Source of the DNA: Amycolatopsis marina
GTDB taxonomy: Bacteria > Actinomycetota > Actinomycetes > Mycobacteriales > Pseudonocardiaceae
Assembly: GCF_900111885.1 (NCBI RefSeq)
Contig: NZ_FOKG01000001.1
Span: 434,001 to 498,000, forward strand
Direction of reading: 5' to 3'
Length of the DNA stretch: 64,000 nt
The position numbers and the translations under genes are program-made. Below are positions 16,030-23,117 of the stretch, one piece after another (within the stretch, counting starts at the first letter, position 1; each line of letters begins with the position of its first letter). The notes beneath the pieces are model-generated. The model was given only the letters and a program-made list of their open reading frames with translations. It had not been told where the DNA came from and did not search any database.

Positions 16030-16686
16030 TCAGTCCGCCCGCGGAAGATCGAAGAATCCGATCAATCCCGCCGCGAATGCCAGGTCACCCTTCACTTTGA
16101 TCCTGCCCGTGACGAACAGCACGGCCGGGGTCGTCTGGCGGGTGACCAGCTTGACGAAGTCGGCCGGAGCGATGGTGATGGTCACTCTCGGCTGCTCCCG
16201 CAACTCCCTGCGCGCCACGCACGCACTGTCCCGGATGACGGTCTCGACGCGGTCGTAGCCGCCGTCGCCGGTCCCACCGGAGAACCGCCAGTGCACCACC
16301 GCGACGAGGTCCCGCGCCCGGTCGGGCTTCAGCTGCGCGCTCATCCGGGCGAAGATCTCGTCGAGCACCCTGGCACACAGGGCCGGCTCTGCCAGCACTC
16401 GATCCAGCTGCGCCCTGGACGCGCGACCGACAAGCGTGGCGAACCTGCGCGGACCCACGCGGCCCAGCGACAGCGCGGGAGCCGCCGGTTCGAGCCTGGT
16501 CAGCACGAGGAGTAACCGGCGAAAACCGTCCTTGCCCAGTGTCGCGAGGTCGACGCTGCCGAGCACGGTGTCCGCGTCGAGCGCAGGGTCGAGTCCAGCG
16601 GGGTCGGCGCGCTCGAGCAGATCAAGCTGGGCGACCCCGCGAACCGCGGTCAGGTCCGCCACCGAAACGCCGGTTCTCTCGGCCAT
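16030..16686 (-). CDS. SCP2 sterol-transfer-domain protein (second of tandem pair)
   Basis: This 218-aa protein has the same plan as its downstream paralogue: a helical N-terminal half with LGRVGPRRFATLVGRA, then an SCP2-like domain with VVHWRFSGG, VETVIRDSACVARRE, TITIAPADFVKLVTRQ, FVTGRIKVKGD and terminal FFDLPRAD. ATG 16686 is chosen over GTG 16692 because GAGGAG at 16693-16698 gives a 6-nt spacing. It is divergent from tetR, and the 43-bp operator palindrome lies immediately 5' of its ribosome site, where it must overlap the promoter. Confidence 0.86.
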   Translation of the reverse strand: MAERTGVSVADLTAVRGVAQLDLLERADPAGLDPALDADTVLGSVDLATLGKDGFRRLLLVLTRLEPAAPALSLGRVGPRRFATLVGRASRAQLDRVLAEPALCARVLDEIFARMSAQLKPDRARDLVAVVHWRFSGGTGDGGYDRVETVIRDSACVARRELREQPRVTITIAPADFVKLVTRQTTPAVLFVTGRIKVKGDLAFAAGLIGFFDLPRAD

Positions 16687-16697
16687 CGCCACTCCTC

Positions 16698-16740
16698 GCT
16701 CTACCTACTGACGCGTAGGCTACCCGTGAGTAGGTAGAGC
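16698..16740. promoter_or_regulatory. Double TetR-type operator in SCP2/tetR divergent promoter
   Basis: This 43-bp near-perfect palindrome has outer arms GCTCTACCTACT (16698-16709) and AGTAGGTAGAGC (16729-16740). It contains two overlapping copies of an (C/G)CTAC-N6-GTAGG dyad at 16704-16719 and 16719-16734. The same dyad occurs alone at 19919-19940 and 21644-21663 before fabG4 and fadA2. Autoregulation by the adjacent TetR protein is inferred. Confidence 0.72.
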
Positions 16741-16807
16741 GGCAAGCGTGCCGAATTTCGGTCCTGACCTCGCCAACCTGTAGCGTTCAAGAGAACAGGA
16801 GGTACGG

Positions 16808-17482
16808 GTGTCAGAGCATGTACAGCGTTCGCCTGAACGGGCTAAGCGCTTACCCCGCGCGGTCCGCGAGAGGCAGATCCTCGACGCGGCCGTGCAGGTT
16901 TTCTCGCGTTACGGCTACCACTCCGCGTCGATGGACGAGATCTCGGACGTCGCCGGAGTGTCCAAGCCGATGATCTACACGTATCTGGGCTCGAAGGAAG
17001 ACCTCTTCGCCCAGTGCATCCGCCGGGAGGCCTCCCGGCTACTGGAAGCCGTGGAGTCCGGCATCCAGCCGGACCTGCCGCCCGACATGCAACTCTGGCA
17101 CGGCCTGCGCTCGTTCTACCGCTTTGTCGCCGACTACCGGGAGTCGTGGACGGTTCTGCACCGCCAGGCACTCGCCGTTGGCGGCTCCTTCGCCGAGGAG
17201 ATCACCTCGATGCGGAGCAGGGCCATCGAACTCGTCGCCGCACTGGTCGTCTCGGCCGGTAGTCAGAAGGGCCTCGCCGACCAGGTCGAGAAGTCCGGCG
17301 AAGGCCTCGCCGCCGCACTGGTCGGAGCTGCCGAGTCGCTGGCGGACTGGTGGCTGGACCACAGCGAGGTCACCGACGGCGTGCTCGCGTCCTGGCTGAT
17401 GAACCTGGTCTGGCTCGGGTTCAACGACCTGGTCGAGGGACGGGTCTGGACACCCAGCAGCAGCCCTGCTCACAACGAGTGA
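16808..17482 (+). CDS. TetR-family transcriptional regulator
   Basis: This 224-aa repressor has a standard N-terminal helix-turn-helix (RQILDAAVQVFSRYGYHSASM then VAGVSKPMIYTYLGSKEDLF, about residues 21-68). The C-terminal ligand domain begins TYRF-like and has no recognised signature. GTG 16808 follows AGGAGG at 16797-16802, with TAGCGT at 16781-16786 as a plausible -10. The gene stands in the same place as the TetR gene near htdX-fabG4-fadA2 in Mycobacterium tuberculosis (Rv0238 region). It most likely controls the operators at 16.7, 19.9 and 21.6 kb, with an acyl-CoA as probable effector. Confidence 0.9.
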   Translation: MSEHVQRSPERAKRLPRAVRERQILDAAVQVFSRYGYHSASMDEISDVAGVSKPMIYTYLGSKEDLFAQCIRREASRLLEAVESGIQPDLPPDMQLWHGLRSFYRFVADYRESWTVLHRQALAVGGSFAEEITSMRSRAIELVAALVVSAGSQKGLADQVEKSGEGLAAALVGAAESLADWWLDHSEVTDGVLASWLMNLVWLGFNDLVEGRVWTPSSSPAHNE

Positions 17483-17483
17483 C

Positions 17484-17548
17484 CGCACTTTCCCGGGAAA
17501 GTGCGATACCTCGCGCGCGCAACTACCGCACTCTTCCGGGAAAGTGCG
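17484..17548. terminator. Paired palindromes between convergent tetR and htdX
   Basis: The palindrome containing GCACTTTCCCGGGAAAGTGC lies at 17484-17505, and a variant lies at 17527-17548, period 43 bp. The variant is the exact reverse complement of the copy at 4603-4624. The pair fills the gap between two convergent stops, so a bidirectional terminator role is likely here. Confidence 0.65.
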
Positions 17549-17549
17549 G

Positions 17550-18515
17550 TTACAGGGCGGTGATGGTGCCTTCCAGGTGCGGCTTCGGTTTGCGCGCGTT
17601 CCACAACTCGAATGCCCACCCGTCGCCCGACCGCCACCCCCCACGGAGACGCTCCGCGCCACCCGCTGAACCGTCGCCCGACCCGTCGCCCGACCCTTCG
17701 CCCGAACCGTCGGGCGGACCGTCGTGGTTCTTCCACGTCGTGAAGGCGGCTTTCGCGGGGAGCAGGACCGGGAGCTTGAACCGGACGTCGACGGTGTAGG
17801 CGTCGGGCAGCCTGCCCTCGAACGCGGCCAGGCTGTGCGCCTTGGTCCACATCCCGTGCGCGATCGCCGAGGGAAAGCCGAACATCCTCGCGGTCAACGG
17901 GTGCAGGTGGATCGGGTTCCGGTCGCCGGACACCTCCGCGTAACGGCGGCCGATGTCGCCCGGCACCCGCCAGATGGCGTTCGGTGACGGCGGTGCGAGC
18001 TGCTCCCGCTTTCCGCTCTGTTCGCCGCTGCCGCCACCGCGGCGCAGGTAGGTGCTGACGTCCGTCCACACCGGACCGTCCTCCGGCGCCCGGCTCGGGA
18101 TCACCTCGCTGACGACGTCGAACTGCTGCCCCTTCTCGTGCGGGCGCAGATTCTCCGCCCGTACCCGCAGCGTGAACGACTCGCCGAGGCGGACCGGCCT
18201 GCGCTGGGTGATGCGGTTGGCGACGTGCACCATGCCCAGCAGCGGAAACGGGAACGCCTGCTCCGTCATCAGCGCGATCTGCAACGGAAACGCCAGGATG
18301 TGCGGATAGGTCGCGGGCAGGTCGTCGGACAACCGGAACCCGCAGACCTCGTTGTAGGCCGCCAGGTGCGCGGGATCGACCACGACGTCGGGGCGCACGT
18401 ACTCGGTGTCCGGGAGGGCGCCGCCGCCCTTGCCGCCCGGCAGCAGTCCGCCGAGCGCAGCCTTGGGGTACAGCGTCGAAAGACTGGGCGCGGAGTGCAG
18501 TTCCTTCACGACCAT
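17550..18515 (-). CDS. htdX: MaoC-like (3R)-hydroxyacyl-thioester dehydratase HtdX
   Basis: This double-hotdog dehydratase of about 321 aa acts on 3-hydroxyacyl-thioesters. The C-terminal MaoC/hydratase-2 motif RRYAEVSGDRNPIHLHPLTA holds the catalytic Asp and His, followed by GFPSAIAHGMW. The N-terminal half has the YPHILAFPLQIALMT and MVHVANRI.QRRPVRLGE features of M. tuberculosis HtdX (Rv0241c). ATG 18515 lies 4 nt after the fabG4 stop; GTG 18527 is an alternative overlapping it. A Gly/Ser/Asp-rich insertion (GEGSGDGSGDGS) from a 12-bp DNA repeat interrupts the C-terminal domain and is not expected in the family. It forms an operon with fabG4. Confidence 0.92.
   Translation of the reverse strand: MVVKELHSAPSLSTLYPKAALGGLLPGGKGGGALPDTEYVRPDVVVDPAHLAAYNEVCGFRLSDDLPATYPHILAFPLQIALMTEQAFPFPLLGMVHVANRITQRRPVRLGESFTLRVRAENLRPHEKGQQFDVVSEVIPSRAPEDGPVWTDVSTYLRRGGGSGEQSGKREQLAPPSPNAIWRVPGDIGRRYAEVSGDRNPIHLHPLTARMFGFPSAIAHGMWTKAHSLAAFEGRLPDAYTVDVRFKLPVLLPAKAAFTTWKNHDGPPDGSGEGSGDGSGDGSAGGAERLRGGWRSGDGWAFELWNARKPKPHLEGTITAL
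17671..17718 (-). repeat. 12-bp tandem repeat inside htdX
   Basis: Four 12-bp units of the type CCGTCGCCCGAC (plus strand) run from 17671 to 17718; the last two have diverged. They encode a Gly/Ser/Asp/Glu repeat in the HtdX C-terminal domain. Being in units of four codons, length changes by slippage keep the frame. Confidence 0.8.
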
Positions 18516-18519
18516 GGCG

Positions 18520-19878
18520 TCACGCACCGATCAGCGCTTGGCCGCACACACGCACGACGTTGCCGTTGACAGCGGAGGAAGCAGGGTTGGCGTACCAGGC
18601 GATGGTCTCGGCTACGTCCACCGGCAGCCCGCCCTGGGCGAGACTGGCGAGCCTGCGACCCGCCTCGCGGATTACCACGGGCACAGCGGCGGTCATCTTG
18701 GTCTCGATGAACCCCGGCGCGACGGCGTTGATCGTGCCACCGTGCTCGGCGAGCCGCGCGGCGCCGTCGTCGACCATGCCGATGACGCCGGCCTTGGTCG
18801 TGGCGTAGTTGGTCTGGCCGACGTTGCCCGCGATCCCGGCGATCGAGGAGACGCCGATGATGCGCCCTCCATCGGTCAGCACGTTGTCGCCGAGCAGCTT
18901 GTCGTTGACGGCGAGCTGGGCGTTGAGGTTGACCGCGAGCACGGCGTCCCAGCCGCCTTCGGTCATGTTGCCCAGCGTCTTGTCCCTGGTGATTCCGGCG
19001 TTGTGCACGACGATGTCCACACCGCCGTGGCGTTCGCTGAGGTACGTCGCGAGCTTCTCCGGCGCGTCGGCAGCGGTGATGTCGAGCTGCAGCGCCGAGC
19101 CGCCGACCCGGTTGGCGACCTGCGAAAGGTCACCGCCCTGGGCGGGAATGTCCAGCGCGACCACGTGCGCGCCGTCCCGGGCGAGCACGTCGGCGATGGC
19201 GGCGCCGATCCCCCTGGAGGCGCCGGTCACCAACGCGATCTTGCCGTCGAGGGGCTTCTCCCAGTTGGCCGGAGCAGCAGCCTGCGGCTTGCCCTTCGTG
19301 CCGGAGGTGACCGTGCCGACCCGGATGACCTGACCGTCGACGAACGCGGACTTGGCCGAGAGCAGGAAGCGCAGCGTGGACTCGGTCGCCTCTTCGGCAC
19401 CCTCGGCCACGTAGACGAGCTGCGCGGTCGCCCCGCGCTTGAGCTCCTTGCCGACGGAGCGGGTGAAGCCCTCAAGCGCGCGCTGGGCGATTCGTTCCCC
19501 GCCCTCGGTGAGTTCCGGGGGCGTACCGAGCACGACGACCCGCCCGCAGGCGCCCACCTTGCGGATCACCGGGTGGAAGAACCTGTAGACCTCGCGCAGG
19601 TCCTTGGGGTCCTTGATGCCGGTGGCGTCGAAGACCAGCGCTCCGTATTTCGTGCCCTCCGCGGCCTCGGTACGCACCTCGATCCCGGCGTCGGCGAGCT
19701 GACTGGTCAGCGTCTTCTCCAGCCGTCCGTTCGGCGCGGCGCCCACAAGCGCGGGACCATCGAGTGCGGGCTGTCCCGGCGTGTAGCGGCGCAGCGGGGT
19801 CGGGTTGGGCAGGCCCAGCTTGGGCACCACGAACCTGCCGATCGGGGACTTGGTGAACTGCTGGTACCTGTCAGCCAT
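18520..19878 (-). CDS. fabG4: High-molecular-weight 3-oxoacyl-thioester reductase FabG4
   Basis: This 452-aa SDR reductase has the two-domain plan of mycobacterial FabG4: a catalytically silent N-terminal Rossmann-like half (about 1-205, with RVVVLGTPPEL) and a C-terminal SDR domain. In the latter the cofactor loop TGASRGIG lies near residues 217-224, NAG follows, and the catalytic Ser and YATTK (Tyr near 356) are intact. It reduces 3-oxoacyl-CoA, typically with NADH in this subclass. Its promoter carries the operator at 19919-19940. The stop is 4 nt before htdX, so the two are co-transcribed. Confidence 0.94.
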   Translation of the reverse strand: MADRYQQFTKSPIGRFVVPKLGLPNPTPLRRYTPGQPALDGPALVGAAPNGRLEKTLTSQLADAGIEVRTEAAEGTKYGALVFDATGIKDPKDLREVYRFFHPVIRKVGACGRVVVLGTPPELTEGGERIAQRALEGFTRSVGKELKRGATAQLVYVAEGAEEATESTLRFLLSAKSAFVDGQVIRVGTVTSGTKGKPQAAAPANWEKPLDGKIALVTGASRGIGAAIADVLARDGAHVVALDIPAQGGDLSQVANRVGGSALQLDITAADAPEKLATYLSERHGGVDIVVHNAGITRDKTLGNMTEGGWDAVLAVNLNAQLAVNDKLLGDNVLTDGGRIIGVSSIAGIAGNVGQTNYATTKAGVIGMVDDGAARLAEHGGTINAVAPGFIETKMTAAVPVVIREAGRRLASLAQGGLPVDVAETIAWYANPASSAVNGNVVRVCGQALIGA

Positions 19879-20173
19879 CGACTGCCTCCGTTGTTGCCGC
19901 CTGCGTCACGGCCCAGCTTAACCTACTCGCGGGTAGGTTACACGGTCAGTCATTCTGACCGGAGCGGATCCGCGGCACTGGCGCCCCTCGAGCGCCCGGC
20001 CGGGTCGAACGCCAACTCCACCGCCGCACCCACCGGCCATCGGACGACGTTTTCGCAGGTGACGCCGACCGGCCGCAGATGGCCTCCGCCACGACCTGGG
20101 AATCTCCGGAACCGGCCGCGAACCTCATGGGTACCTCCCGCACAACGAGTCGAAACTGTGAGGATTGGTCCAG
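19879..20173. other. Intergenic region with fabG4 promoter and a second dyad
   Basis: This 295-bp region between fabG4 and the hypothetical gene holds the operator at 19919-19940. A perfect 7-bp inverted repeat, CGGTCAG-TCATT-CTGACCG, lies at 19943-19961. AGGA at 20161-20164 precedes the next gene. No other gene or signal is seen. Confidence 0.6.
19919..19940. promoter_or_regulatory. TetR-type operator at fabG4-htdX promoter
   Basis: TAACCTAC-TCGCGG-GTAGGTTA is a perfect 8-6-8 dyad, 41 nt upstream of the fabG4 start. On the minus strand it overlaps TAGGTT, a possible -10, so binding would block transcription. Confidence 0.75.
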
Positions 20174-21544
20174 ATGGTGATCCAGCATGCAAACTCTTCC
20201 GAGTATCTCGCAGCCGTTCGAACGGCAATGGACGAGTTCGAGGAAGCCCTCAGGAACCGCTATACAGATAGCTTCAAAAATTGGAAAACCGGGGGAAACG
20301 GCGCTCAATGGACGCTAGGCGGCGCCTTACAACCCCAACTCGATCCGGCGATGTCTGACGACGAAGCGGACCGCATATTCCAGGAAGCCACGAGCCACGT
20401 TCCAAAATGGGCCGCCGAAATTCGCGCCGATGCGGAATCAGCAATTCCGGTGTACGACAGTCAGGAGCTGAATGAACTGAACTCAGCGGTCGAGCAAATG
20501 AACCACATAGCTCAACTGCTCGAGTTCAACGGACCCGCATTGAGGGACAAAGGCGAGATTTCAGATATCACGAATGAGATCAGCAGCGCGGGCGGCGAAT
20601 GGCAGGGCGTTTCCGCCGACAAGTTCGGCGAAGACTTCGGCAAATCAGCAGAACCAACCAAGGAAAATCAGCGGGATATTGCCGTGAGTCTCGCCAAACT
20701 GTATTCCGCACGCGCGGCCGTCATTTCGTCTATTCGCGGACACACGCTTACCTCGATACGACAGGCAACAGAGCAGTTAGGCGCTACCGTCGATTCCGGC
20801 GCAGAAAGCGTGCGATGGACGATGGCTAGCGTATTCGCCATCATTGTCGGATTTGCCGGCCCGGTGGCGGCTGTCGCAACATCGGTGGCAGCCATAGTGG
20901 GTAGTATCGTCGACCCCGCGGACCCCGACCAGAAATTCGAGAATGACATCGGCAGCGTAGTTGCCGAACTCAAGACGGCGCTCGAGGACGGAAAGAACAA
21001 AGCCGTAGAAAACGAGACGGAATATTCCGCCAAGGTGACAGAACTCCAAGATGCGATCACGGAAAAACAAAACGCGGAGCCAAGGAATCTGGAACTGTAC
21101 GATTTCACCAGCAGTGGCGAAAGCGTGGGGCAAGCCGAGGCCGGGGGATACACCTATGTACGAGCTACCATCGAGCGGCTCGCGAAGGCCTGCTACCTCG
21201 CCTCCGAGAAGTACGAGCCATTGATCAACCATGCCATCGCGACAGACGACGCGGACCCACAGTTGAAGGGGATCAACAATACGGAACAGTCGGGTGATGT
21301 ATACCTGAAGGACACTCGTGACACTTTCGTCTCCTTCTTGCAAACCACGTGCGCACGATATCGCGAAGCAGGTGATCGACTCATGGACGCCGCCCGCGAG
21401 TACGACAACGCCGAAACAAACGACGAGGATATCCTCACCGCAATAGGGAAAGAGTTGGACTTCAACGGCGACGAGTCGGGCACCGAGACGGTGACACAGC
21501 ACGTCGGAGCAACCCCTGGCATCGAGAAGCACTGGAATCAGTGA
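20174..21544 (+). CDS. Hypothetical protein, partly WXG100-like, low GC
   Basis: I do not recognise this 456-aa protein. It is mostly helical and acidic, without a signal peptide. A stretch near residues 145-195 (GGEWQGVSADKFGEDF then RDIAVSLAKLYSARAA) resembles a WXG100/ESX-type helix-Trp-helix hairpin. A hydrophobic segment rich in Ala, Gly, Val and Ile lies near 218-248. The C-terminal half is coiled-coil-like. ATG 20174 follows AGGA at 20161-20164; a TTG at 20165 is possible. GC is visibly lower than in neighbours, with codons such as ATA, AAA and TCA. It separates fabG4 from fadA2, which are adjacent in mycobacteria. A secreted or toxin-like role is only a guess. Confidence 0.8.
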   Translation: MVIQHANSSEYLAAVRTAMDEFEEALRNRYTDSFKNWKTGGNGAQWTLGGALQPQLDPAMSDDEADRIFQEATSHVPKWAAEIRADAESAIPVYDSQELNELNSAVEQMNHIAQLLEFNGPALRDKGEISDITNEISSAGGEWQGVSADKFGEDFGKSAEPTKENQRDIAVSLAKLYSARAAVISSIRGHTLTSIRQATEQLGATVDSGAESVRWTMASVFAIIVGFAGPVAAVATSVAAIVGSIVDPADPDQKFENDIGSVVAELKTALEDGKNKAVENETEYSAKVTELQDAITEKQNAEPRNLELYDFTSSGESVGQAEAGGYTYVRATIERLAKACYLASEKYEPLINHAIATDDADPQLKGINNTEQSGDVYLKDTRDTFVSFLQTTCARYREAGDRLMDAAREYDNAETNDEDILTAIGKELDFNGDESGTETVTQHVGATPGIEKHWNQ

Positions 21545-21643
21545 GGATCCGCGTTGGCCGCCGGGCGAGGATGGCCAGCCAGGCCTGATTCTGGACGAAG
21601 CCGGTTAGGTGACAGCCGTTCGCGGTGTTCCTGGTCAACCACA

Positions 21644-21663
21644 AACCTACTCACGGGTAGGTT
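21644..21663. promoter_or_regulatory. TetR-type operator at fadA2 promoter
   Basis: AACCTAC-TCACGG-GTAGGTT is a perfect 7-6-7 dyad differing from the fabG4 operator only in the spacer. TACACT at 21663-21668 is a good -10, so the operator abuts or overlaps it. Confidence 0.75.
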
Positions 21664-21713
21664 ACACTGTGGCCGGGTTGGAATCACCGACACATTCGGG
21701 CGCTGGAGGAATC

Positions 21714-23117
21714 ATGAGCTCAGCTGAGAAGCCGGCGAGCGGGCGGGCTCGCACGACGCGCAGCACTGCCAAGGGGGCCGCCGCGAAGAGCGGCGGGGCC
21801 AAGGGCGGCACCGCGAAGAGTGCGGCACCCAAGGGCGGCACGGACTCCGGCGTGCGCAGGGTGGCCGTCATCGGAGCGAACCGGATTCCGTTCGCGCGCT
21901 CGAACGGCCCCTACGCCAACGCGTCCAATCAGGACATGCTCACCGCGGCCCTGGACGGACTCATCAGTCGGTTCTCGCTGCAGGGCGAGCGAATCGGCGA
22001 GGTGGCCGCTGGCGCGGTACTCAAGCACTCGCGTGACTTCAACCTCGCCAGGGAGTGTGTGCTGGGCAGCGCGCTCTCGCCCGAGACTCCGGCGGCCGAC
22101 GTGCAGATGGCCTGCGGCACCGGGCTGCAGGCGATCGTCAACGTCGCCAACAAGATCGCCCTCGGCCAGATCGACTCGGCGATCGCGGGCGGCGTGGACA
22201 CCACCAGCGACGCCCCGCTGGCCGTGAACGACAAGCTGCGCAAGCTGCTCGTCCAGCTCAACGCCGCGAAGAGCGCGGGGGACCGGCTCAAACTGCTGGC
22301 GAAGATCCGCCCCGGCCACATCGTGCCGGAGATCCCCCGCAACTCCGAGCCACGCACCGGCCTGTCGATGGGCGAGCACGCCTCGGTCACGGCGAAGGAA
22401 TGGGACATCTCGCGCGCCGCTCAGGACGAGCTGGCCGCGACCAGTCACCAGCGTCTCGCCGCCGCGTACGAGCGCGGTTTCTTCGATGACCTGCTGACGC
22501 CGTTCCTGAAGCTGTCGAAGGACCAGAACCTGCGGGCGGACTCGACGGCCGAGAAGCTGGGCAAGCTCAAGCCGGCGTTCGGCGGTCCCGAAGGCACCAT
22601 GACGGCGGGCAACTCCACGCCGCTGTCCGACGGCGCGTCGACGGTGCTGCTGGCCACCGAGGAGTGGGCGAAGGAGCGCAACCTGCCGGTGCTGGCGTAC
22701 CTGACGTTCTCGCAGACCGCTGCGGTCGACTACGTACACGGGGACGAGGGCCTGCTGATGGCACCCGCGTACGCCGTGCCGCGCATGCTCGCCCGCGCCG
22801 GACTGTCCCTCCAGGACTTCGACTACTACGAGATCCACGAGGCATTCGCCTCACAGGTGCTGGCCACGCTGAAGGCTTGGGAGGACCCGGCCTTCGCGAA
22901 GGAGAAGCTCGGACAGGACGCGCCGCTCGGCTCGATCGATCGCGCCAAGCTGAACGTCAACGGCTCCTCGCTCGCGGCAGGTCACCCGTTCGCCGCGACC
23001 GGCGGACGCATCGTGGCGACGCTGGCGAAGCTGCTCGACGAGAAGGGCTCGGGTCGTGGCCTGATTTCCATCTGTGCCGCCGGCGGCCAGGGAATCACCG
23101 CCATCCTGGAGAAATAG
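21714..23117 (+). CDS. fadA2: Acetyl-CoA acyltransferase (thiolase) FadA2
   Basis: This 467-aa thiolase cleaves 3-oxoacyl-CoA or condenses acetyl-CoA units. The nucleophilic Cys134 is in QMACGTGLQ, the catalytic His in EIHEAFA, the GHPFAATGGR loop is present, and the second Cys is in CAAGGQG. An N-terminal tail of about 45 residues is rich in Ala, Lys and Gly (repeats such as AKSGGAKGGTAK), unusual for a thiolase and perhaps flexible or interaction-prone. ATG 21714 follows GGAGGA at 21705-21710. Its promoter carries the CTAC-N6-GTAG operator. Together with FabG4 and HtdX it can form or degrade 3-oxo, 3-hydroxy and enoyl-CoA intermediates. Confidence 0.93.
   Translation: MSSAEKPASGRARTTRSTAKGAAAKSGGAKGGTAKSAAPKGGTDSGVRRVAVIGANRIPFARSNGPYANASNQDMLTAALDGLISRFSLQGERIGEVAAGAVLKHSRDFNLARECVLGSALSPETPAADVQMACGTGLQAIVNVANKIALGQIDSAIAGGVDTTSDAPLAVNDKLRKLLVQLNAAKSAGDRLKLLAKIRPGHIVPEIPRNSEPRTGLSMGEHASVTAKEWDISRAAQDELAATSHQRLAAAYERGFFDDLLTPFLKLSKDQNLRADSTAEKLGKLKPAFGGPEGTMTAGNSTPLSDGASTVLLATEEWAKERNLPVLAYLTFSQTAAVDYVHGDEGLLMAPAYAVPRMLARAGLSLQDFDYYEIHEAFASQVLATLKAWEDPAFAKEKLGQDAPLGSIDRAKLNVNGSSLAAGHPFAATGGRIVATLAKLLDEKGSGRGLISICAAGGQGITAILEK

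What the first reader, a model, noticed from the sequence alone, without database searches (positions are those of the whole stretch)
16698..21663. Shared CTAC-N6-GTAG operator defines a TetR lipid regulon
Four copies of one dyad occur at three promoters: two overlapping copies in a 43-bp near-palindrome between the SCP2 genes and tetR (16698-16740), one before fabG4-htdX (19919-19940) and one before fadA2 (21644-21663). The last two are perfect dyads. TetR, HtdX, FabG4 and FadA2 match the Rv0238-Rv0243 region of M. tuberculosis, so the TetR protein at 16808 very likely represses this acyl-CoA module and itself. It also links the tandem SCP2 proteins to the pathway.
Basis: partly seen in the sequence, partly recalled or inferred. 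Interest (0 to 1): 0.72.

Follow-up and report, generated by a model that had tools for sequence, protein, structure and literature searches.

The report
FdmR-type operator for fatty-acid breakdown
A repeated DNA signal beside fatty-acid-breakdown genes in this actinomycete is very probably the landing site of the regulator gene among them, a relative of the known mycobacterial repressor FdmR, and it has been kept beside the same genes in several related bacterial families.

Summary
In detail: four exact CTAC-N6-GTAG dyads, all at three promoters; 0.10 are expected. "Perfect dyads" is too strong. The loose motif is not enriched genome-wide (31 sites, control 47). Footprinting supports an operator: all 77 named TetR-ortholog loci that hold both genes carry YTAC-N6-GTAR in the fabG4-fadA2 gap; only 3 exact copies lie outside the two promoter regions in 1.6 Mb. 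Among 150 genomes of the order the extended motif occurs in 57 of 59 with this TetR and 11 of 91 without, there at control level. The tetR-side operator tracks a tandem SCP2 pair (46 of 46; 1 of 12 without adjacent SCP2). Further sites precede fadE (30 of 30), a lipase (23 of 30) and an SDR (18 of 30). The regulator's mycobacterial counterpart, Rv0238, is already published as FdmR, a long-chain acyl-CoA-responsive repressor of fatty-acid degradation (cited in PMC12403877; original not held). So this is an FdmR-type regulon outside mycobacteria, with SCP2 genes added and, here, the shared operator duplicated by an insertion. Binding was not measured; paralogs may share distant sites.

The parts
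16698..16740 (.). Double operator between SCP2b and tetR (cores 16705-16718 and 16720-16733, centres 15 bp apart)
   Evidence: in relatives two exact YTAC-N6-GTAR dyads 16 bp apart in 34 of 80 loci and 15 bp apart in 3 of 80; a site is present in 46 of 46 loci with a tandem SCP2 pair
19920..19939 (.). Operator at the fabG4-htdX promoter (core 19923-19936)
   Evidence: dyad in 77 of 77 fabG4-fadA2 gaps
19915..19920 (-). Predicted -10 box (TAAGCT) for fabG4-htdX, starting two bases outside the dyad core
   Evidence: TAnnnT at this offset in 62 of 78 relatives' sites
21644..21663 (.). Operator at the fadA2 promoter (core 21647-21660)
21663..21668 (+). Predicted -10 box (TACACT) for fadA2, starting two bases outside the dyad core
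   Evidence: TAnnnT at this offset in 76 of 78 relatives' sites
16808..17482 (+). TetR-family regulator (FdmR/Rv0238 type), predicted to bind the operators
   Evidence: co-occurrence with the motif
16030..16692 (-). SCP2-domain protein, first gene of the tandem pair
   Evidence: PF02036
15372..16010 (-). SCP2-domain protein, second gene of the tandem pair
   Evidence: PF02036
18520..19878 (-). FabG4-type 3-ketoacyl reductase
17550..18527 (-). HtdX-type MaoC hydratase/dehydratase, its start overlaps the fabG4 stop
21714..23117 (+). FadA2-type thiolase
19944..21643 (+). Inserted segment with a 459-aa ORF (20165-21544) that splits the fabG4-fadA2 promoter region; flanked by a 24-bp direct repeat (19920-19943 and 21644-21667, one mismatch) that contains the whole operator
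   Evidence: no ORF459 match and only short gaps in the 77 relatives, including the sister locus L069

Best explanation
The dyad ([C/T]TAC-N6-GTA[A/G], here AACCTAC-N6-GTAGGTT) is the operator of the TetR protein at 16808-17482, the counterpart of mycobacterial FdmR (Rv0238). A TetR dimer binds it. In the usual arrangement one dyad sits between two opposed -10 boxes, so one bound dimer blocks both fabG4-htdX and fadA2. A tandem pair of dyads upstream of tetR controls the divergent SCP2 genes and probably tetR itself. Long-chain acyl-CoA releases the repressor, as reported for FdmR, so beta-oxidation and acyl-carrier genes are expressed when acyl-CoA accumulates. Sites at an acyl-CoA dehydrogenase (fadE), an SDR and a lipase gene make these likely further targets. 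Shown here by sequence: the sites, their conservation and position, and their co-occurrence with this TetR. Taken from the literature on the mycobacterial protein: repression and acyl-CoA response. Inferred: that both hold here, and binding itself.
For: Sites are beyond chance. 77 of 77 named loci with both genes keep the dyad in the fabG4-fadA2 gap, 70 of 77 in exact CTAC/GTAG form; 3 exact copies lie outside the two regions in 1.59 Mb. TAnnnT at a fixed offset on both sides (76 of 78 and 62 of 78) puts the dyad inside both promoters. The extended motif is enriched only where this TetR exists: 57 of 59 genomes, 136 sites against 18 control, with it; 11 of 91, 14 against 21, without it. In the family, 37 of 52 against 0 of 8. 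tetR-side site by SCP2 state: 46 of 46 (tandem pair), 11 of 22 (one adjacent), 1 of 12 (none adjacent). Fold: nearest solved structures are RHA1 3f1b, then FasR, then Bacillus FadR. Rv0238 = FdmR is described as a long-chain acyl-CoA-responsive repressor of fatty-acid degradation genes (PMC12403877, passages), and a table in PMC4928086 sets Rv0238 against Rv0241c (HtdX) and Rv0243 (FadA), apparently as their regulator (passage).
Against: FasR, a related TetR, activates (PMC7382501, passages). Related TetRs with similar half-sites exist (C18 paralog, 38% identity, with N5-spaced TTAC/GTAG pairs upstream), and fadE here lies beside a double-TetR gene, so distant sites could belong to paralogs. 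22 of 80 loci have no exact YTAC-N6-GTAR site upstream of tetR, so autoregulation is not universal. FadH sites are in only 3 of 19 loci, SDR in 18 of 30. The loose motif is not enriched genome-wide. fadE, SDR and lipase sites lack a TAnnnT box at the fixed offset (0 of 37, 0 of 21, 0 of 23; SDR has it one base nearer in 8 of 21). Co-occurrence counts are not corrected for phylogeny and are confounded by presence of the target genes. One genome in which no TetR was found (G173, 86% complete) has a fadE site of the laxer form (L203).
Confidence: 0.85

Rival explanations
1. The dyad is a shared operator class of several FasR/FdmR-like TetR paralogs. The local TetR reads only the promoters of its own cluster; the sites at fadE, lipase and SDR genes are read by paralogs such as the C18 protein or the double-TetR beside fadE.
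For: The C18 paralog (38% identity) has similar half-sites with N5 spacing upstream. A TAC-N6-GTA motif upstream of Rv2524c (fas), Rv3229c and Rv3230c is on record (PMC3388012, passages), and FasR binds three inverted repeats at fas (PMC7382501, passage), which suggests that FasR reads the same core. The double-TetR gene lies directly before fadE here.
Against: The fadE site is in 30 of 30 loci, but a double-TetR match was found in only 13 of those 30 within the fetched flanks of about 1.5 kb (two of them fragments at the edge, so more may lie beyond) and in 0 of 6 mycobacteria-like loci. In two genomes (L195, L196) the fadE site is the exact consensus 20-mer of the fabG4-fadA2 gap. Extended-motif enrichment follows this TetR. 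FdmR is reported to repress fatty-acid degradation genes.
Confidence: 0.25
2. The TetR acts as an activator at these promoters, as FasR does at fas, with acyl-CoA switching expression off.
For: FasR, a related protein, activates (PMC7382501, passages). The sites at fadE lie without a -10 box at the fixed offset.
Against: At fabG4-fadA2 the dyad lies between two -10-like boxes, which fits blockage. The mycobacterial counterpart FdmR is described as a repressor.
Confidence: 0.07
3. The dyad is a core-promoter or structural element, not a regulator site.
For: At fabG4-fadA2 it lies next to -10-like boxes.
Against: It also occurs without such boxes upstream of fadE and lipase genes, as exact tandem pairs at 16-bp (34 of 80) or 15-bp (3 of 80) spacing, is enriched only in genomes with the TetR, and the insertion in this window left a whole dyad at each promoter.
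Confidence: 0.03

Closest known systems
FdmR (Rv0238 of Mycobacterium tuberculosis; Dong et al. 2021, PNAS 118:e2019305118, seen only as a citation)
   Same: Same gene neighbourhood (HtdX-FabG4-FadA2; 7 of 7 fetched f8 loci). Described as long-chain acyl-CoA-responsive repressor of fatty-acid degradation and modification genes (PMC12403877, passages). Kept in all mycobacteria examined, M. leprae included (PMC4482099, passages).
   Different: 37-45% identity. Here the operator is CTAC/GTAG instead of TTAC/GTAA, SCP2 genes are part of the module, and the shared operator is split in two. Whether the FdmR paper gives an operator I could not see (not held).
FasR (NCBIfam NF053731; PDB 6O6N/6O6O/6O6P)
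   Same: Best NCBIfam match (93.8 bits), second-nearest fold, lipid regulator released by long acyl-CoA (PMC7382501, passages).
   Different: Far below the FasR cut-off of 330 bits; 25-26% identity in the fold alignment; FasR activates fas-acpS.
Bacillus FadR (TetR type; PDB 3whc, 5gpa)
   Same: Next in the fold list; regulator of fatty-acid degradation, solved with stearoyl-CoA (PDB titles).
   Different: 17-23% identity; below its NCBIfam cut-off (45.9 against 200 bits).
TAC-N6-GTA palindrome of PMC3388012
   Same: Same core and spacing, in clusters of closely spaced sites upstream of fatty-acid genes, linked to genes up under palmitate (passages).
   Different: No regulator assigned in the passages seen; targets named there are Rv3229c, Rv3230c and Rv2524c.
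MadR (Rv0472c), Mce3R, KstR
   Same: TetR-type lipid regulators of mycobacteria; KstR controls a large lipid-degradation regulon (PMC1995591, search listing).
   Different: MadR consensus TCTGTGxxxxxxxGT (PMC8872791, passage); Mce3R is a double TetR that binds a non-palindrome (PMC11667970, search listing); the KstR operator differs (recalled).

Membership tests
TetR family of regulators | N-terminal TetR HTH domain | tested here: met
   PF00440 at 57.1 bits, cut-off 24
TetR family of regulators | All-helical fold with C-terminal ligand-binding domain | tested here: met
   AlphaFold model pLDDT 87.2, nine helices; PF21943; best-ranked solved structures are TetR-type regulators
TetR family of regulators | Binds a palindromic operator as a dimer | not testable with these tools
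   Conserved dyads found; binding not measured
FdmR (Rv0238) group | Synteny with HtdX, FabG4, FadA2 | tested here: met
   7 of 7 fetched f8 loci and 77 of 80 named relatives; the other 3 show none of these genes on the DNA held. That f8 is Mycobacteriaceae is inference; no named M. tuberculosis sequence was fetched
FdmR (Rv0238) group | Operator-like dyad in the fabG4-fadA2 gap | tested here: met
   YTAC-N6-GTAR in the gap of 7 of 7 f8 loci and 77 of 77 named loci
FdmR (Rv0238) group | Repression of fatty-acid degradation genes, relieved by long-chain acyl-CoA | not testable with these tools
   Reported for Rv0238; target genes here fit
FasR (NF053731) | Score above the curated cut-off of 330 bits | tested here: not met
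   93.8 bits
Bacillus-type FadR (NF053878) | Score above the curated cut-off of 200 bits | tested here: not met
   45.9 bits; works like it at most
MadR regulon | TCTGTGxxxxxxxGT-type site | tested here: not met
   The dyads here are CTAC-N6-GTAG

The most novel reading that the evidence does not exclude
FdmR-type control of fatty-acid breakdown is older than mycobacteria: one operator and a core of fabG4-htdX, fadA2 and fadE are shared by several families of the order, while each lineage adds its own genes. In Pseudonocardiaceae the addition is a tandem pair of SCP2 acyl carriers with its own double operator, gained and lost together with it. In this genome an insertion has turned one shared bidirectional operator into two, a natural test of what each promoter needs.
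Probability: 0.6. Interest if true: 0.5.

Novelty: new member of a known kind. Interest (0 to 1): 0.36.

Why it matters
The regulator type and its role are known from mycobacteria (FdmR). What would be added is an exact operator with its variants in several families, a predicted regulon outside mycobacteria, the link of tandem SCP2 proteins to acyl-CoA control, and a likely regulator for part of a mycobacterial motif reported without one (PMC3388012). All of it can be tested in harmless Amycolatopsis strains.

Tried and rejected
Loose motif as a genome-wide marker: rejected, 31 sites against 47 control. First conservation script guessed strand from stop codons and was wrong for many loci; redone with the table's strands; only the PWM consensus is used. 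FadH as a core target: rejected (3 of 19). MadR as reader: rejected. Double-TetR neighbour as general reader of the fadE site: not supported; that query was in a wrong frame and no result rests on it. Sites at C13 and C18 of this genome looked like chance or coding and were dropped. The site at C39:26307 between two secreted-lipase genes was not tested for conservation. ORF459: no Pfam or NCBIfam family. Novelty, interest and the odds of the repressor reading were changed for that reason.

Genes at the 69 strict-motif sites of 60 family genomes: 48 lie at fabG4-fadA2 (13), tetR-SCP2 (5), fadE (15), SDR (10), lipase (3) or FadH (2) genes. Most of these classes were chosen because this genome has a site there, so the figure is partly circular. 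Of the other 21, 16 were scanned: acyl-CoA-synthetase-like AMP-binding (2), lipases (2), an alpha/beta hydrolase, an SDR, and 10 others such as two cyclases, proteases, a Pup ligase, a substrate-binding protein and HTH proteins; L283, L286, L347, L354 and L364 were not.
Full report
WHAT IS THERE. The window holds exactly four CTAC-N6-GTAG dyads, at 16705, 16720, 19923 and 21647. Dinucleotide shuffles of the window give 0.10 on average and never 4 in 200. They sit at three promoters: SCP2/tetR, fabG4-htdX and fadA2. Two corrections. The two single sites have perfect 7-bp arms (AACCTAC/GTAGGTT) but imperfect centres (9 of 10 and 8 of 10 pairs). And the bare motif is not enriched genome-wide (31 against 47 control sites), so only extended forms are informative.

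FOOTPRINTING. Eighty loci with the closest TetR orthologs were fetched with organism names (80 best of 135 confirmed). Three of them show no htdX, fabG4 or fadA2 on the DNA held. In the other 77 fabG4 and fadA2 are divergent and the gap carries the dyad: 70 exact, and all 77 if the outer base may be C/T and G/A. In 1,594,949 bp there are 70 exact dyads in that gap, 50 upstream of tetR and 3 elsewhere. The dyad lies between two opposed TAnnnT boxes, each starting two bases outside the core: 76 of 78 sites on the fadA2 side, 62 of 78 on the fabG4 side. A dimer on the dyad would thus block both promoters at once (inference).

AN INSERTION SPLITS THE OPERATOR HERE. Unlike in the 77 relatives, about 1.7 kb with a 459-aa ORF splits the gap. 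It is flanked by a 24-bp direct repeat, AACCTACTC[G/A]CGGGTAGGTTACAC, that contains the whole operator. The sister locus in A. palatopharyngis (L069) has the short gap with one operator. Each copy has a TAnnnT box only on the side of its own gene.

THE tetR-SIDE OPERATOR. In relatives it is often a tandem pair: two exact YTAC-N6-GTAR dyads 16 bp apart in 34 of 80 loci, 15 bp apart as in the window in 3 of 80. At least one site upstream of tetR is found in 58 of 80 loci. It is present in 46 of 46 loci with a tandem SCP2 pair next to tetR, 11 of 22 with one adjacent SCP2 gene and 1 of 12 with none adjacent (Fisher 2e-11 for pair against rest, not corrected for phylogeny). The operator therefore seems to serve the SCP2 genes at least as much as tetR.

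Among 150 genomes of the order, 59, in 5 of 16 families, have this TetR at E of 1e-30 or better (a threshold set after seeing the gap in the scores). CYTACTNNNNAGTARG is found in 57 of these 59 (136 sites, 18 control) and in 11 of the other 91 (14 sites, 21 control). Within the family, CCTACTNNNNAGTAGG gives 69 sites against 4 control in 60 genomes, in 37 of 52 genomes with the TetR and 0 of 8 without. That strict form misses the window's own sites, so it undercounts. Neither test corrects for phylogeny or for joint presence of the target genes. One of the eight, G173, is only 86% complete, and its fadE does carry a laxer site (L203).

WIDER REGULON. Other extended sites of this genome lie before an acyl-CoA dehydrogenase (C24), an SDR (C15), a hormone-sensitive-lipase-like protein (C39), a FadH/OYE-type reductase (C32) and between two secreted lipases (C39). 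In family relatives a YTAC-N6-GTAR site lies within 300 bp upstream in 30 of 30 fadE, 23 of 30 lipase, 18 of 30 SDR and 3 of 19 FadH loci; an equal stretch inside the genes gives 0 in all four sets. Only the best-scoring matches were tested: 30 of 36 for fadE, 30 of 33 for SDR (some probably paralogs), 30 of 55 for the lipase, 19 of 19 for FadH. Of 26 that I looked at, 10 are in the fabG4-fadA2 gap, 7 before fadE (6 genomes), 3 before other acyl-CoA dehydrogenases, and one or two each before an Fe-S protein (EtfD-like by recall), methylmalonyl-CoA mutase, an SDR, a DUF4442 protein and flavin monooxygenases. The fadE sites of f8 were found with a TTAC-form pattern, so the shared change from CTAC to TTAC at fabG4-fadA2 and fadE is only suggestive; the two-way pattern prints no site with CTAC and GTAG on both sides in the 15 of 18 f8 genomes whose matches are shown.

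WHAT THE PROTEIN IS. Its best family model is FasR, far below cut-off (93.8 against 330 bits). The predicted structure (pLDDT 87) is nearest to a Rhodococcus RHA1 TetR (3f1b, 45% identity), then FasR, then Bacillus FadR.

WHAT IS KNOWN. Rv0238 is FdmR: PMC12403877 (passages) says that FdmR was characterised as a long-chain acyl-CoA-responsive repressor of genes of fatty-acid degradation and modification, and that its loss gives overactive fatty-acid catabolism and shortened lipids, citing Dong et al. 2021 (PNAS 118:e2019305118), which is not held. A table in PMC4928086 sets Rv0238 against HtdX (Rv0241c) and Rv0243, apparently as regulator (passage). PMC8648758 gives Rv0238 as an example of factors predicted essential only on glycerol (passage). 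PMC4482099 lists it among five TetRs kept in all mycobacteria examined. PMC3388012 reported a TAC-N6-GTA palindrome upstream of Rv3229c, Rv3230c and fas without naming a regulator in the passages seen. FasR binds three inverted repeats at fas (PMC7382501), so FasR may read the same core (my inference). FadA2, FadE23 and FadE24 rise together in starved BCG (PMC11250799, passages); that the fadE here is of the FadE24 type is recall, not tested.

VERDICT. The finding is real and its interpretation largely right. It is a member of a known kind, an FdmR-type fatty-acid regulon, extended beyond mycobacteria with strong comparative support and two local twists: the SCP2 pair and the duplicated operator. 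Open points are binding, ligand and sign in this organism, and how sites are shared with paralogs.

Noticed in passing
window 19944-21643: Lineage-specific insertion with a 459-aa ORF, flanked by a 24-bp direct repeat that contains the operator. Relatives: a second copy in the same genome (C46, 43% identity) and a Prauserella cavernicola protein (59%) with a WXG100 domain, PF06013.
   Followed up: partly
L143: A record labelled Rhodococcus rhodnii carries a version of this locus very like the Kibdelosporangium ones (same fabG4-fadA2 dyad as L142); the label or assembly may be wrong.
   Followed up: no
L371:6090-6986 (G000 C18): TetR paralog (38% identity) with two TTAC-N5-GTAG half-site pairs upstream, divergent to what reads like a flavin monooxygenase gene: perhaps a sister regulator with different spacing.
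   Followed up: partly
L151:6656-7855 (G000 C24): Double-TetR (Mce3R-like) gene directly upstream of the operator-bearing fadE and divergent to a thiolase gene.
   Followed up: partly
L130, L135-L138: In some Prauserella tetR is 3.4-3.8 kb from htdX and has no exact site upstream, and the fabG4-fadA2 dyad has the GTAA variant on one side.
   Followed up: no
L285, L286: A strict site precedes a secreted DUF6801 protein (L285); L286 carries nearly the same site region in reverse orientation in a second genome of that genus. Function unknown.
   Followed up: no
literature on Rv0238: The regulator turns up in isoniazid-related gene lists (PMC12687858, PMC8613195, passages); a link to lipid control was not examined.
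   Followed up: no
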